Below, one piece after another: positions 41,476 to 48,448 of a DNA stretch of 64,000 bases. The notes below the pieces were generated by a model. The model ran no database searches, was not told the origin of the DNA, and was given only the letters and a program-made list of their open reading frames with translations. Source of the DNA: Amycolatopsis sp. FBCC-B4732 (GTDB lineage: Bacteria > Actinomycetota > Actinomycetes > Mycobacteriales > Pseudonocardiaceae). The stretch is from assembly GCF_023008405.1 (NCBI RefSeq), contig NZ_CP095376.1:5108001-5172000 (forward strand), in the 5' to 3' direction. Positions within the stretch are counted from its first letter, which is position 1. The number at the start of each line of letters is the position of its first letter. A program made the position numbers and the translations under genes.

Positions 41476-42060
41476 ATGAGCGACGAGATCGACACCGTCC
41501 TGGACGCGGTCGGGCCGCGGTTGCGCGCGCTGCGGCGGCAGCGCGGCGGCACCCTGGCCGGGGTCTCGGCCGAGACCGGGATCTCGGAAAGCACCCTGTC
41601 GCGGCTGGAAAGCGGGCTGCGGCGGCCGAATCTGGAACTGCTGCTGCCGCTGTCACGCGCCTACGACGTCCCGCTCGACGACCTCGTCGGCGCCCCGCGC
41701 ACCGGCGACCCGCGCGTCCACCTGCACCCGGTGCACCGGTACGGCATGACGTTCGTGCCGCTCACCCGCCGCCCCGGCGGCGTGCACGCGTACAAGATGC
41801 TGATCCCCGCGACTGGCGAGCCCGCCGAGCCGACGCCGCAGACGCACAGTGGCTACGAGTGGCTCTACGTCCTCAACGGGACGCTGCGGCTGGTCGTCGG
41901 CGACCGCGACCTCGACCTGCCGCCGGGCGAGGCCGCGGAGTTCGACACGACCGCGCCGCACTGGCTGGGCTCCGCCGACGGCCGTGCGGTCGAGCTGCTG
42001 ATCCTGTTCGGCCTGCAGGGCGAGCGCGTGCACGTCCGGCCGCGCGACGATCAGCCGTGA
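41476..42060 (+). CDS. XRE-family regulator with C-terminal cupin domain
   Basis: The 194-residue protein has an N-terminal XRE helix-turn-helix (about 12-68; LAGVSAETGISESTLSRLES) and a C-terminal cupin (about 90-185; HSGYEWLYVLNGTLRLVVGD and DLPPGEAAEFDTTAPHWLGS). Such proteins sense small ligands through the cupin. It diverges from the methyltransferase-DinB pair, with a perfect palindrome between. GGGGC precedes the ATG. The last ten bases overlap the convergent sulfotransferase. Confidence 0.92.
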   Translation: MSDEIDTVLDAVGPRLRALRRQRGGTLAGVSAETGISESTLSRLESGLRRPNLELLLPLSRAYDVPLDDLVGAPRTGDPRVHLHPVHRYGMTFVPLTRRPGGVHAYKMLIPATGEPAEPTPQTHSGYEWLYVLNGTLRLVVGDRDLDLPPGEAAEFDTTAPHWLGSADGRAVELLILFGLQGERVHVRPRDDQP

Positions 42061-43208
42061 GCCGCCCGGTAGCCCGCGAACCGTTCGTCGACTTCCTCGG
42101 GCGTCAAGCCGAAGTCCGCGAGGCTGTACCGGTGCACGGGCTTCCGTTCCCCCGTCCGGCTTTGCCCGTGCACCGCGGTCATGGCCGCCCGCGCCTCGCC
42201 GGTGAGATCGAGTCCGAAGTGGTCGTACACAGTGGACACCGTGCCGATCGGGTCGGCGACGAAGTCTTCGTAGGCCACGTCGCAGAACTGCGCCGGGTCG
42301 TAGCGCCCTCGGGCCAGCAGGAAGTCGTCGGCGCCGCGGGCCCACAGGTCGAGCTGGCCGCGGCCGATCACCTCGCCGCGGAACTTCGCCGACCAGCCGT
42401 CCGCGGCCTTTTCGGCGAGGCTGCACATCGAGCCCATGATCGTCCGCGGCGCCCGGTGCGTCTGGATCACCAGCGCGTCCGGGTAGTTCGCCATCAGCGC
42501 GTCCAGCGCGAACAGGTGGCTCGGGTTCTTGAGTACCCAGCGCTTGCCCGCGTCCGGCAGCCCGATCAGCTGCAGGTTGCGCCGGTGCCGGGCGTAGGCG
42601 TCCGTCCAGTCCTCTTTGGCCAGCCAGCGCGAGTAGCGCGGGAGGTGCGCGAGGCACTCGAACGAAACCGAGCGCATCGACTGGCGCAGCAGCTGCCAGC
42701 ACTCCTCCACCTGGTCGGCGGACATGTGGTGCACGCCCATGAACTCCGGGTGCTCGACGTGGTGGCGTTCGTACCCGGCCTGGATCCCTTGGAAGATCGG
42801 GTTTTCCGCCCACGTCTCCCGCGGCGGCCGCGGCTGCGGGACCTCCGCGAGCCACACCTCGAGACCCTGGTGCGCGGGGTCCTCGACGAGCAGCCGGTGC
42901 AGCGCGGTGGTGCCGGTGCGGGGCAGGCCGGTGACGAAGATCGGCCGTTCGACGCGGACGTCCGCGTAATCCGGGTTCTGCTTCCAGGACGCCTCGCTCA
43001 GCAGCCGCGCCACGAGCGCGCCGCGCAGCATCGCCCGGTGCACCTTGTTGCCGAACGGCGTGAGGTCCTCGTCGGCCTCGTACGACTCCAGCAGCACGCG
43101 CAGGCCCTCGAGGTATTCGCCGGTGCCGAAGTCGTCGAGCCCGGTGAGCTTCGAGGCCGATGCGTGCAGGTCTTCGACGGTGCCGACGTCTTCGCGGCCG
43201 GGGAGCAT
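42051..43208 (-). CDS. PAPS-dependent sulfotransferase family protein
   Basis: The 385-residue protein has the PAPS 5'-phosphosulfate loop IFVTGLPRTGTTALHRLL (about 88-105) and the 3'-phosphate region ALVIQTHRAPRTIMGSMCSL (about 240-260), as in the Sulfotransfer_3 group widespread in mycobacteria and relatives. It moves sulfate from PAPS to a hydroxyl or amine. ATG 43208 follows AGGAGGTTCG. It is last in an operon with SDR, DUF1214 and SnoaL-like genes, and the divergent cysD-cysNC genes would supply PAPS. Acceptor unknown. Confidence 0.88.
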   Translation of the reverse strand: MLPGREDVGTVEDLHASASKLTGLDDFGTGEYLEGLRVLLESYEADEDLTPFGNKVHRAMLRGALVARLLSEASWKQNPDYADVRVERPIFVTGLPRTGTTALHRLLVEDPAHQGLEVWLAEVPQPRPPRETWAENPIFQGIQAGYERHHVEHPEFMGVHHMSADQVEECWQLLRQSMRSVSFECLAHLPRYSRWLAKEDWTDAYARHRRNLQLIGLPDAGKRWVLKNPSHLFALDALMANYPDALVIQTHRAPRTIMGSMCSLAEKAADGWSAKFRGEVIGRGQLDLWARGADDFLLARGRYDPAQFCDVAYEDFVADPIGTVSTVYDHFGLDLTGEARAAMTAVHGQSRTGERKPVHRYSLADFGLTPEEVDERFAGYRAAHG

Positions 43209-46640: not shown

Positions 46641-48448
46641 TGCAGCTGCTGAGGATCGCCACGGCGGGCAGCGTGGACGACGGGAAGTCCACGCTGATCG
46701 GCAGGCTGCTGTTCGACTCGAAGGCGATCTTCACCGATCAGCTCGCCGCCGTCGAACGCGCCAGCCGTGAACGCGGCGAGGACTACCCGGACCTCGCGCT
46801 GCTCACCGACGGCCTGCGCGCCGAGCGCGAGCAGGGCATCACGATCGACGTCGCGCACCGCTACTTCGCCACGCCCAAGCGGAAGTTCATCATCGCCGAC
46901 ACCCCGGGGCACCTGCAGTACACGCGGAACATGGTGACCGGCGCGTCGACGGCGGACCTGGCGCTGGTCCTGGTGGACGCGCGCAAGGGCGTGCTGGAGC
47001 AGTCGCGGCGGCACGCGTTCCTCGCCTCGCTGCTCGGGATCGGGCACCTCGTGGTGTGCGTGAACAAGATGGACCTCGTCGGGTGGTCGGCGGCGCGCTT
47101 CGAGGAGATCCGCGAGGAGTTCCGGCGGTTCGCGATGAAGCTCGACGTCGCCGACCTGACGTTCGTGCCGGTTTCGGCGCTGCACGGCGACAACGTCGTC
47201 CACCGCAGCGCGAGCATGCCCTGGTACGAGGGGACTTCGCTGCTGCACCAGCTCGAAGAGGTGCACGTCGCCTCCGACCGCAACCTGATCGACGCCCGGT
47301 TCCCGGTGCAGTACGTCATCCGCCGGCCGGACTTCCGCGGCTACGCGGGCACCATCGCGGGCGGGGTGTTCAAGCCGGGCGACGAGGTGGTGGCGCTGCC
47401 GTCGGGGTTCACCTCCCGCGTCCGCGCGGTGTGGGGCCCCGGCGGGACCCCGCTCGCGGAAGCCTTCACCGGCCAGGCGGTGACGGTCGAGCTGGCCGAC
47501 GACCTGGACCTAGGGCGCGGCGCGATGCTCTGCCGCCCGGGCAACCGCGCGGAGACCGCGCGCGAGGTCGACGCGCTGGTGTGCTGGTTCTCCTCGCGGT
47601 CGTCGCTGACGCCGGGCGCCACGTTCGCGGTGCGGCACACGACGTCCGAGACGCGGGGCACGGTGGAGAAGCTGGAGTACCGCCTCGACGTGACGACGCT
47701 GCACCGCGACTCCGCGGAATCGTTGTCCTTGAACGACATCGGCCGCATCCGGCTGCGCACGCGGGCGCCGCTGCTGTTCGACCCGTACCGCCGCAACCGC
47801 GCCACGGGCGGGTTCCTGCTGGTCGACGAGCACACCGGCGACACGGTCGCGGGGGGCATGATCACCGGCGCCCCGGCGTCCCCGGTCGTCTGGCACACCG
47901 CGGCGGTCCGCCGCGAGGACCGCCCGACCCGCGGCGCGACGGTGTGGCTCACCGGCCTTTCGGCATCGGGCAAGTCGTCGGTGGCGGTGGAGCTCGAACG
48001 CCGGCTGGTCGCGGCCGGCCGCCCGGCGTACCTCCTCGACGGCGACAACCTGCGCCACGGACTGAACGCGGGCCTCGGTTTCAGCCCGGAGGACCGCGCG
48101 GAGAACGTCCGGCGGGTGGCCGAGGTGGCCCGCCTGTTCGCGGACGCGGGCGTGGTGGCGATCGCGTCCCTGATCAGCCCTTATGCGTCGGACCGGGCTC
48201 GCGCGCGGGAGGTGCACGCGGACCTGCCGTTCGTGGAGGTCTTCGTGGACACGCCCCTGGAGGTGTGCGAGGCACGCGACCCGAAGGGGATGTACGCGAA
48301 GGCGCGTGCCGGGGAGATCAAGGGGTTCACCGGCGTCGACGCGCCGTACGAGCGGCCGTCCTCGCCGGACCTGATCCTCCACCCGGCCGACGGCGACCCG
48401 GCGACCATGGCCGCCGCCGTCCAGGCCCTCCTCGACGACCTCGGCTAA
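46640..48448 (+). CDS. cysNC: Sulfate adenylyltransferase large subunit fused to APS kinase
   Basis: This 602-residue protein joins CysN (about 1-425: GTPase motifs GSVDDGKST, DTPGH, NKMD and LRAEREQGITIDVAHRYF) to CysC (about 433-602: P-loop GLSASGKS at 439-446, LDGDNLRHGLNAGLGFS, GEIKGFTGVDAPYE). The product makes APS and phosphorylates it to PAPS, the layout of rhizobial NodQ and mycobacterial CysNC. No PAPS reductase or sulfite reductase gene is near. The divergent operon ends in a sulfotransferase, so PAPS may go to sulfation. The 3' end overlaps a convergent methyltransferase by four bases. Confidence 0.94.
   Translation: MQLLRIATAGSVDDGKSTLIGRLLFDSKAIFTDQLAAVERASRERGEDYPDLALLTDGLRAEREQGITIDVAHRYFATPKRKFIIADTPGHLQYTRNMVTGASTADLALVLVDARKGVLEQSRRHAFLASLLGIGHLVVCVNKMDLVGWSAARFEEIREEFRRFAMKLDVADLTFVPVSALHGDNVVHRSASMPWYEGTSLLHQLEEVHVASDRNLIDARFPVQYVIRRPDFRGYAGTIAGGVFKPGDEVVALPSGFTSRVRAVWGPGGTPLAEAFTGQAVTVELADDLDLGRGAMLCRPGNRAETAREVDALVCWFSSRSSLTPGATFAVRHTTSETRGTVEKLEYRLDVTTLHRDSAESLSLNDIGRIRLRTRAPLLFDPYRRNRATGGFLLVDEHTGDTVAGGMITGAPASPVVWHTAAVRREDRPTRGATVWLTGLSASGKSSVAVELERRLVAAGRPAYLLDGDNLRHGLNAGLGFSPEDRAENVRRVAEVARLFADAGVVAIASLISPYASDRARAREVHADLPFVEVFVDTPLEVCEARDPKGMYAKARAGEIKGFTGVDAPYERPSSPDLILHPADGDPATMAAAVQALLDDLG

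What the first reader, a model, noticed from the sequence alone, without database searches (positions are those of the whole stretch)
42051..48448. Self-contained sulfation module: PAPS synthesis divergent from a sulfotransferase operon
Seen: SnoaL-like, DUF1214, SDR and sulfotransferase genes are coupled by 4-base overlaps (the sulfotransferase follows by 8 bp), and diverge from cysD-cysNC, with 57 bp between the two starts. Known: CysD plus CysNC make PAPS, and PAPS is the donor of sulfotransferases; rhizobial nodPQ-nodH uses the same logic. No cysH or sulfite reductase gene is near, so assimilation is not the obvious purpose. Inference: the SnoaL/SDR/DUF1214 proteins build or tailor a hydroxylated small molecule or lipid that is then sulfated.
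Basis: partly seen in the sequence, partly recalled or inferred. Interest (0 to 1): 0.72.

Follow-up and report, generated by a model that had tools for sequence, protein, structure and literature searches.

The report
Sterol-controlled sulfation gene module
A soil actinomycete carries a gene set that makes the cell's sulfate donor right beside a sulfate-transferring enzyme, and a likely switch site for the cholesterol-degradation repressor lies between them, which suggests that these bacteria attach sulfate to a steroid (or something made from one) while they eat sterols.

Summary
SnoaL, DUF1214-like, SDR and sulfotransferase genes (45668-42051, minus strand) diverge from cysD-cysNC (45726-48448). 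The arrangement is old: 66 of the 80 closest named relatives have cysD, cysN and cysC beside the operon, divergent in all 66. The genome has a separate assimilatory locus (sulfite-type reductase, cysH, cysD, cysN without kinase), while the only APS kinase and only sulfotransferase found are both here. Such sites occur in the regulatory region of 77 of 80 relatives (shuffles: mean 0.13), and near the DUF1214 start in 74. All 98 genomes with the DUF1214 gene, of 397 searched, also have KstR. In Mycobacterium the three-gene core has no cysDNC nearby and lies near kshA; in another genome it follows hsaC-hsaB. SnoaL resembles bile-acid dehydratase BaiE; the sulfotransferase matches PDB 2ZQ5. Best reading: a KstR-controlled module, self-sufficient in PAPS, that sulfonates a hydroxysteroid or sterol catabolite. 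Acceptor and KstR binding are inferred, not shown.

The parts
42051..43208 (-). Sulfotransferase (Sulfotransfer_3), 385 aa, last gene of the operon
   Evidence: PF13469 200.6 bits; best solved relative 2ZQ5, E 1.5e-166; PRTGTT loop; only PF13469/PF00685 match in the genome
43217..44005 (-). SDR oxidoreductase, 262 aa, with YxxxK
   Evidence: PF13561, NF005909 over cut-off; best solved relative 3UCX, then 7alpha-hydroxysteroid dehydrogenase 1AHH, only slightly ahead of many other SDRs
44002..45192 (-). DUF1214-like protein, 396 aa
   Evidence: PF06742 18.2 bits, below cut-off; profile match to 6ANS E 9.8e-36; predicted fold matches 6ANS, TM 0.68, mean pLDDT 68; start read
45173..45186 (.). Second, weaker KstR-type palindrome (10 of 12) inside the first codons of the DUF1214-like gene; in most relatives a stronger site stands just upstream of this gene
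45189..45668 (-). SnoaL_4 protein, BaiE-like (steroid dehydratase-like), 159 aa, first gene of the operon
   Evidence: PF13577 118.4 bits; best solved relative BaiE 4L8O E 2.7e-18 with the Tyr, Asp, His and Arg positions conserved
45702..45715 (.). KstR-type operator AAGAACATGTTCTA (minus strand TAGAACATGTTCTT) in the divergent promoter
   Evidence: motif from PMC1995591
45690..45719 (+). Possible cysD promoter TTGACC-18-TACTTT with the operator in its spacer (inference; weak -10)
   Evidence: read; the consensus scan found no promoter-like site, so unproven
45726..46640 (+). cysD, ATP sulfurylase small subunit
   Evidence: TIGR02039 458.2 bits, cut-off 396.6
46640..48448 (+). cysNC, ATP sulfurylase GTPase fused to APS kinase (PAPS synthesis)
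   Evidence: NF004035 933 bits, cut-off 715; only APS kinase match in the genome
41473..42060 (+). XRE-cupin regulator, tail-to-tail with the sulfotransferase gene; flanking, probably not part of the module
   Evidence: a homologue lies beside the operon in 1 of 80 relatives (L024) and elsewhere in the flank of one more (L074)

Best explanation
It is a sterol-induced sulfonation module of the KstR regulon. When sterol catabolites relieve KstR, two divergent operons are switched on together: CysD and CysNC convert sulfate to APS and then PAPS, and the SnoaL (BaiE-like dehydratase), DUF1214-like, SDR and sulfotransferase proteins act on a hydroxylated steroid or steroid-derived catabolite, which the sulfotransferase sulfonates with that PAPS. 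Shown by sequence: gene order, families, single APS kinase and single sulfotransferase found in the genome, separate assimilatory locus, KstR gene, operator-like sites and their conservation. Inferred: KstR binding here, PAPS flow to this sulfotransferase, a steroid acceptor, and the purpose (detoxification/solubilisation, or handling of a dead-end or hydroxylated intermediate).
For: Divergent cysDNC next to the operon in 66 of 80 named loci (3 of the other 14 are cut by contig ends) and an APS kinase within 10 kb in 43 of 58 non-Mycobacterium loci. The only APS kinase and the only sulfotransferase found in the genome are both here. Assimilation has its own locus; its CysH passes the APS-reductase model narrowly (236.1 vs 235.3) and fails the PAPS-reductase model TIGR02057 (184.4 vs 254.2), though it also passes two broader models named phosphoadenylyl-sulfate reductase. 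KstR-type sites of at least 10/12 in 77 of 80 regulatory regions, 0.13 expected by shuffling; all 50 cysD+SnoaL loci carry one between cysD and SnoaL; 29 of 29 short unnamed loci L102-L130 carry one (partly the same species as the named set). KstR (NF033703, 339.3 vs 280), KstD and HsaC are in this genome, kstR with its own site. All 98 of 397 genomes with the DUF1214 gene have KstR. In Mycolicibacterium chitae the core lies near kshA; in G285 it follows hsaC-hsaB. M. smegmatis MSMEG_5932, 6-fold derepressed without KstR, belongs to this family by its forward qPCR primer (PMC1995591). Its M. [quoted passage not shown] PMC6429209). CysQ-like genes (clearing PAP) adjoin the module in 10 of 80 loci.
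Against: No acceptor or product is known; no binding or expression data exist for this organism. No listed APS kinase lies near the core in any of the 41 sampled g31 (Mycobacterium) genomes, nor in the five genomes of g3, G330 or G224. 27 of 125 KstR genomes lack the DUF1214 gene, so the module is not needed for every KstR bearer. Four of ten longer unnamed loci (L134, L136, L139, L146) have no site within 2.5 kb upstream; L139 has sites further up, before the run with hsaC. In the window's genome, three of the other motif places looked at (L013, L020, L141) lie inside genes of no evident sterol role. PMC6429209 flags Rv3531c as required but Rv3529c and Rv3530c only as involved, so sulfonation itself may be dispensable. 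The SDR fails the 7alpha-hydroxysteroid dehydrogenase model (129.1 vs 367). The DUF1214 function is unknown. The 80 loci are the best of 476 and so lean to close relatives.
Confidence: 0.6

Rival explanations
1. KstR-controlled sulfation of a non-steroid acceptor: when sterols are present the cell sulfonates a cell-envelope lipid, menaquinone or similar molecule, as some mycobacterial sulfotransferases do.
For: PMC3141025 (passages) lists four M. tuberculosis sulfotransferases and cites one that starts sulfolipid-1 synthesis; PMC1995591 argues that the large KstR regulon is not for cholesterol alone (passages).
Against: Where examined, contexts without cysDNC are steroid-catabolic (kshA, hsaBC, ChsH2-like/lipid-transfer genes); the SnoaL relative BaiE acts on steroids.
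Confidence: 0.22
2. The proteins form a catabolic step in which sulfonation activates a steroid hydroxyl as a leaving group and the BaiE-like SnoaL protein or DUF1214-like protein eliminates it; sulfate is released again.
For: BaiE-like dehydratase in the same operon; PAPS synthesis shares the operator region as if sulfate use were high-flux; Rv3531c listed as predicted to be required on cholesterol.
Against: No precedent in sterol catabolism that I know of (recall); SnoaL was found in only 60 of 80 loci; costly in ATP; Rv3529c is not listed as required.
Confidence: 0.1
3. The cysDNC genes are housekeeping assimilation genes and their place beside the operon is incidental.
For: CysD and CysN also feed assimilation in other bacteria (general knowledge); in Mycobacterium the two are unlinked; the CysH of the other locus also passes models named phosphoadenylyl-sulfate reductase.
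Against: A full assimilatory locus with its own cysD-cysN lies elsewhere; adjacency and an operator between the genes are conserved over many genera.
Confidence: 0.05

Closest known systems
Bacteroides cholesterol-sulfate cluster BT_0411-BT_0416 (PMC9417993, passages read)
   Same: A sulfotransferase gene beside putative PAPS synthesis genes; Bt_0412 and Bt_0416 are raised by cholesterol; the product is cholesterol sulfate.
   Different: Gut Bacteroides; no KstR, SnoaL, SDR or DUF1214 gene mentioned in the passages seen; homology of BT_0416 to this enzyme was not tested.
Mycobacterial KstR-regulon genes Rv3531c, Rv3530c, Rv3529c / MSMEG_5932 (PMC1995591, PMC6429209, passages read)
   Same: DUF1214-like gene followed by SDR and sulfotransferase (seen in L133 and L134); KstR site before Rv3531c positive in EMSA; MSMEG_5932 KstR-repressed.
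   Different: No cysDNC nearby (41 genomes) and no SnoaL hit in L133 or L134; not described as a sulfation module in what I read. That Rv3530c and Rv3529c are the SDR and sulfotransferase is inferred from order and recall.
Rhizobial nodPQ-nodH (recalled)
   Same: Dedicated ATP sulfurylase/APS kinase serving one sulfotransferase.
   Different: Acceptor is a Nod factor oligosaccharide; control by nod genes; not compared by sequence here.
BaiE bile acid 7alpha-dehydratase (4L8O, 4LEH)
   Same: SnoaL protein aligns over residues 6-139 with the Tyr, Asp, His and Arg positions kept.
   Different: Anaerobic gut bile-acid operon (recalled); activity here untested.

Membership tests
PAPS-dependent sulfotransferase (Sulfotransfer_3) | Profile match over cut-off | tested here: met
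   PF13469 200.6 bits vs 27
PAPS-dependent sulfotransferase (Sulfotransfer_3) | PAPS use and acceptor | not testable with these tools
   Needs enzymology; PRTGTT loop present
CysD/CysNC PAPS synthase | CysD plus CysN fused to APS kinase, over curated cut-offs | tested here: met
   TIGR02039 and NF004035 over cut-off
KstR regulon | Palindrome TnnAACnnGTTnnA in the promoter | tested here: met
   Window site 11 of 12 to TAGAACnnGTTCTA; one of the 8 core letters (an outer T/A) departs from the published core
KstR regulon | KstR encoded in the genome | tested here: met
   NF033703 339.3 vs 280, divergent from an acyl-CoA dehydrogenase-like gene with its own site
KstR regulon | KstR binding and sterol-dependent expression in this organism | not testable with these tools
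   Published data concern the mycobacterial orthologues only
Assimilatory cysDN locus | Linked to cysH and sulfite reductase | tested here: not met
   These lie about 4.2 Mb away with another cysDN
Bacteroides-type steroid sulfonation cluster | Sulfotransferase beside PAPS genes | tested here: met
Bacteroides-type steroid sulfonation cluster | Homology to BT_0416 and steroid sulfate product | not tested
   BT_0416 sequence was not fetched
Nod-factor sulfation (NoeE) | NoeE equivalog over cut-off | tested here: not met
   NF052394 22.5 bits vs cut-off 500
BaiE-like steroid dehydratase | Conserved Tyr30, Asp35, His83, Arg146 (numbers and roles recalled) | tested here: met
   Read from the alignment; activity not testable
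7alpha-hydroxysteroid dehydrogenase (for the SDR) | NF004773 equivalog over cut-off | tested here: not met
   129.1 vs 367
DUF1214 (PF06742) | Profile over gathering cut-off | tested here: not met
   18.2 bits vs 25; fold resembles 6ANS

The most novel reading that the evidence does not exclude
Sulfonation is a working step of actinobacterial sterol breakdown: PAPS made under KstR control activates a steroid hydroxyl, which a BaiE-like/DUF1214-like pair then eliminates, so that sulfate acts as a handle in ring or side-chain degradation; this would also assign functions to the orphan Rv3529c-Rv3531c genes.
Probability: 0.1. Interest if true: 0.88.

Novelty: new variant of a known kind. Interest (0 to 1): 0.64.

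Why it matters
Several KstR-regulon genes, among them Rv3529c-Rv3531c, have no assigned function in the papers I saw. Finding the orthologous operon tied, by position and by a KstR-type operator between the genes, to PAPS synthesis in Amycolatopsis, Nocardia, Kutzneria, Prauserella and others says that these genes handle sulfonation and gives a direct test in harmless hosts. It also links sulfur activation to sterol degradation, could matter for industrial steroid conversion (a possible loss route to steroid sulfates), and offers an actinobacterial counterpart to the Bacteroides cholesterol-sulfate pathway.

Tried and rejected
Considered and dropped: assimilation as the role of cysDNC (separate locus); the XRE-cupin gene as local regulator (beside the operon in 1 of 80 relatives); IclR as part of the window module (a homologue lies between the genes in 42 of 80 relatives, none in the window group L022-L032). 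The conserved-neighbour clustering with my own gene caller mis-called overlapping frames; I used it only as a lead. An alignment of sulfotransferases failed on a stop codon and was not repeated. AlphaFold of the DUF1214-like protein is of low confidence (pLDDT 68), so the 6ANS fold match is taken only because a sequence profile agrees (E 9.8e-36). Literature: in the listings of the searches I saw no paper tying cysDNC or PAPS synthesis to KstR or to actinobacterial sterol catabolism; several listings were partial (20 of 39, 25 of 174, 15 of 108, 12 of 52) and the library lacks most subscription journals, so this is not proof of absence. Papers: passages found by term in PMC1995591, PMC6429209, PMC9417993, PMC3141025, PMC9782250 and PMC3161971; outline and passages of PMC10398937; all others as listings only. 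Recalled, not from a call: 2ZQ5 = M. tuberculosis Stf1 and its equation with Rv3529c; Rv3526 = kshA; numbering and roles of BaiE residues; NodPQ-NodH; the cysteine signature of APS reductases.
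Full report
1. What is there. On the minus strand 45668-42051 lie SnoaL, a DUF1214-like gene, an SDR and a sulfotransferase, with ATGA and GTGA overlaps and an 8-bp gap before the sulfotransferase. Divergent from them, 57 bp away, are cysD and cysNC, which overlap by one base. Family matches are strong for all but the DUF1214 label. The genome is a 10.19 Mb single contig; the closest named relatives are Amycolatopsis.

2. Sulfation or assimilation. The genome has three PAPS_reduct-type matches: the window's cysD and two at 0.98 Mb. 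That second locus (L004) reads sulfite/nitrite-type reductase, cysH, cysD-like and a cysN without APS kinase. Its CysH passes the NCBIfam APS-reductase model by a narrow margin (236.1 vs 235.3) and fails the PAPS-reductase model TIGR02057 (184.4 vs 254.2), but it also passes two broader models named phosphoadenylyl-sulfate reductase (266.2 vs 154; 208.2 vs 165.1). The CC...CxxC residues in its sequence are, as I recall, the iron-sulfur signature of APS reductases. I take assimilation there to start from APS; this is likely, not proven. The only APS kinase match and the only sulfotransferase by two Pfam models are the window's. The window's cysDNC is therefore the genome's only recognised PAPS source, and this sulfotransferase its only recognised sulfotransferase.

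3. Conservation. A scan of named genomes with an alignment of the DUF1214-like family found 476 relatives; the best 80 were kept, so the set leans to close relatives. Of these, 80 have the sulfotransferase, 77 the SDR at 45% identity or more (missing in the three Kutzneria loci L056, L070, L091), 60 SnoaL, and 66 cysD, cysN and cysC, divergent in all 66. Three of the 14 loci without cysDNC are cut off by contig ends (L033, L054, L073). In an even sample of 397 genomes of the order, 98 have the DUF1214 gene at E<=1e-60. Outside genus g31 an APS kinase lies within 10 kb in 43 of 58 loci (57 genomes; several of the 15 others are on short contigs of incomplete genomes, others such as G330, G224 and the five g3 genomes are real misses). 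In the 41 g31 genomes none of the listed APS kinase matches is near (read by eye; one second match in G325 was not listed; many are draft genomes with the two on different contigs). g31 is taken to be Mycobacterium because its member G230 matches Mycolicibacterium chitae at 100%. In G214 and G317 the APS kinase match ends 111 bp, and in G309 117 bp, directly upstream of the DUF1214 match on the same strand; in L146 (G214) cysD, cysNC, DUF1214-like, SDR and sulfotransferase read as one run.

4. The operator. The divergent gap contains AGAACATGTTCT. KstR, repressor of sterol catabolism, binds at TAGAAC-NN-GTTCTA, core TnnAACnnGTTnnA (PMC1995591). The window 14-mer matches 11 of 12. Requiring 10 of 12 with AAC and GTT fixed, 77 of 80 loci have a site in the regulatory region, against a mean of 0.13 and a maximum of 1 in 200 mononucleotide shuffles; elsewhere in the same loci there are 27 such sites in 1.5 Mb. 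The misses are L054 (cut off) and L084 and L088, which have sites about 2 kb upstream. All 50 loci with both cysD and SnoaL carry the site between them (46 at 11, 4 at 10 of 12), with a variable two-base centre. 74 of 80 loci have a site close to the DUF1214 start, mostly 12 of 12; in the window group this one lies in the first codons and scores 10. All 29 short unnamed loci L102-L130 have a site (some are the same species as named loci); of ten longer ones six have one within 2.5 kb and L134, L136, L139 and L146 do not. Genome-wide the window's genome has 19 AGAACNNGTTCT places against 6 for the reversed pattern. Besides the two in the window I looked at six: three lie beside sterol-type genes (an acyl-CoA dehydrogenase-like gene, an SDR/CoA-transferase-like cluster, the hsaC-kstD region) and three lie inside genes of no evident sterol role (L013, L020, L141).

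5. KstR and sterol genes. The window's genome encodes KstR (NF033703, 339.3 vs 280), divergent from an acyl-CoA dehydrogenase-like gene with the site TAGAACGTGTTACA between them, plus KstD and HsaC over their cut-offs. In the 397 genomes KstR (E<=1e-45) occurs in 125, including all 98 with the DUF1214 gene; 27 have KstR alone and 272 neither. Shared ancestry inflates the Fisher value (1.7e-68), so I rely on the 98 of 98.

6. Contexts without cysDNC. In Mycolicibacterium chitae (L133) the core follows a KstR-type site and lies about 1.2 kb from kshA (KshA_C 301.6 bits), with a metallo-beta-lactamase-type gene between. In G285 (L139) it directly follows hsaC and hsaB. In G224 (L138) it lies about 5 kb from a ChsH2-like DUF35 gene and a lipid-transfer/thiolase-type gene. 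The published M. smegmatis MSMEG_5932 is KstR-repressed (6-fold) and is given as orthologue of Rv3531c, whose upstream site was positive in EMSA (PMC1995591). Its forward qPCR primer falls inside the DUF1214-like gene of a g31 genome, the only hit in 396; the reverse primer and the published 20-mer site were not found in that 3-kb stretch, so the genome is a relative rather than the same strain. [quoted passage not shown] Rv3529c and Rv3530c only as involved (PMC6429209).

7. What the proteins resemble. SnoaL: bile acid 7alpha-dehydratase BaiE is by far the best solved relative (E 2.7e-18; next 0.015, ketosteroid isomerase), and the four BaiE positions Tyr30, Asp35, His83, Arg146 are kept (numbering and roles recalled). 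SDR: 3UCX, then 7alpha-hydroxysteroid dehydrogenase, barely ahead of other SDRs and below that family's NCBIfam cut-off, so its steroid link is weak. Sulfotransferase: 2ZQ5, which I recall as M. tuberculosis Stf1. DUF1214-like: 6ANS, a Burkholderia protein of unknown function. CysQ-like genes, whose products clear the PAP by-product (PMC3141025), adjoin cysNC or stand in the place of cysDNC in 10 of 80 loci (the two scanned matched CysQ models below cut-off); the window's genome has only a weak match elsewhere.

8. Mechanism. Most likely, sterol catabolites lift KstR from the shared promoter, PAPS synthesis and the four-gene operon rise together, and a hydroxysteroid or sterol-derived catabolite is sulfonated. 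Co-induction of PAPS synthesis would suggest sulfonation at substantial flux. Whether the product is an end product (detoxified, soluble, exported) or a transient is open. The closest working analogue is the Bacteroides cluster BT_0411-BT_0416, where a cholesterol sulfotransferase lies beside putative PAPS genes and Bt_0412 and Bt_0416 respond to cholesterol (PMC9417993, passages).

9. Verdict. Observation confirmed; interpretation improved. My estimates: regulation by KstR about 0.9, dedicated PAPS supply about 0.9, steroid-derived acceptor about 0.6.

Noticed in passing
L135 and L136 (G060): One genome of genus g43 carries two diverged copies of the whole module, each with cysD-cysNC; only one copy has a KstR-type site, the other has a CysQ-like gene directly after cysNC.
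   Followed up: partly
L146 (G214); also G317, G309: An APS kinase lies directly upstream of the DUF1214 gene on the same strand; in L146 cysD, cysNC, DUF1214-like, SDR and sulfotransferase form one run without a KstR-type site within 2.5 kb (site checked in L146 only).
   Followed up: partly
L034, L059 and similar (42 of 80 named loci): An IclR-family regulator gene sits between cysD or SnoaL and the DUF1214 gene, divergent from the latter; it was not found in the window group L022-L032.
   Followed up: partly
L056, L070, L091 (Kutzneria): The close SDR homologue is missing from the operon; the sulfotransferase directly follows the DUF1214-like gene.
   Followed up: no
window 45173-45186: The second KstR-type palindrome overlaps the first codons (Glu-Asn-Glu-Phe) of the DUF1214-like gene in the window and 11 close named relatives, while in most others it stands upstream: perhaps an operator taken into coding sequence.
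   Followed up: partly
window 48445-49149 and 40797-41594: SAM methyltransferase genes lie on both sides of the module (one directly after cysNC, tail to tail); they are not conserved neighbours over the wider set.
   Followed up: no
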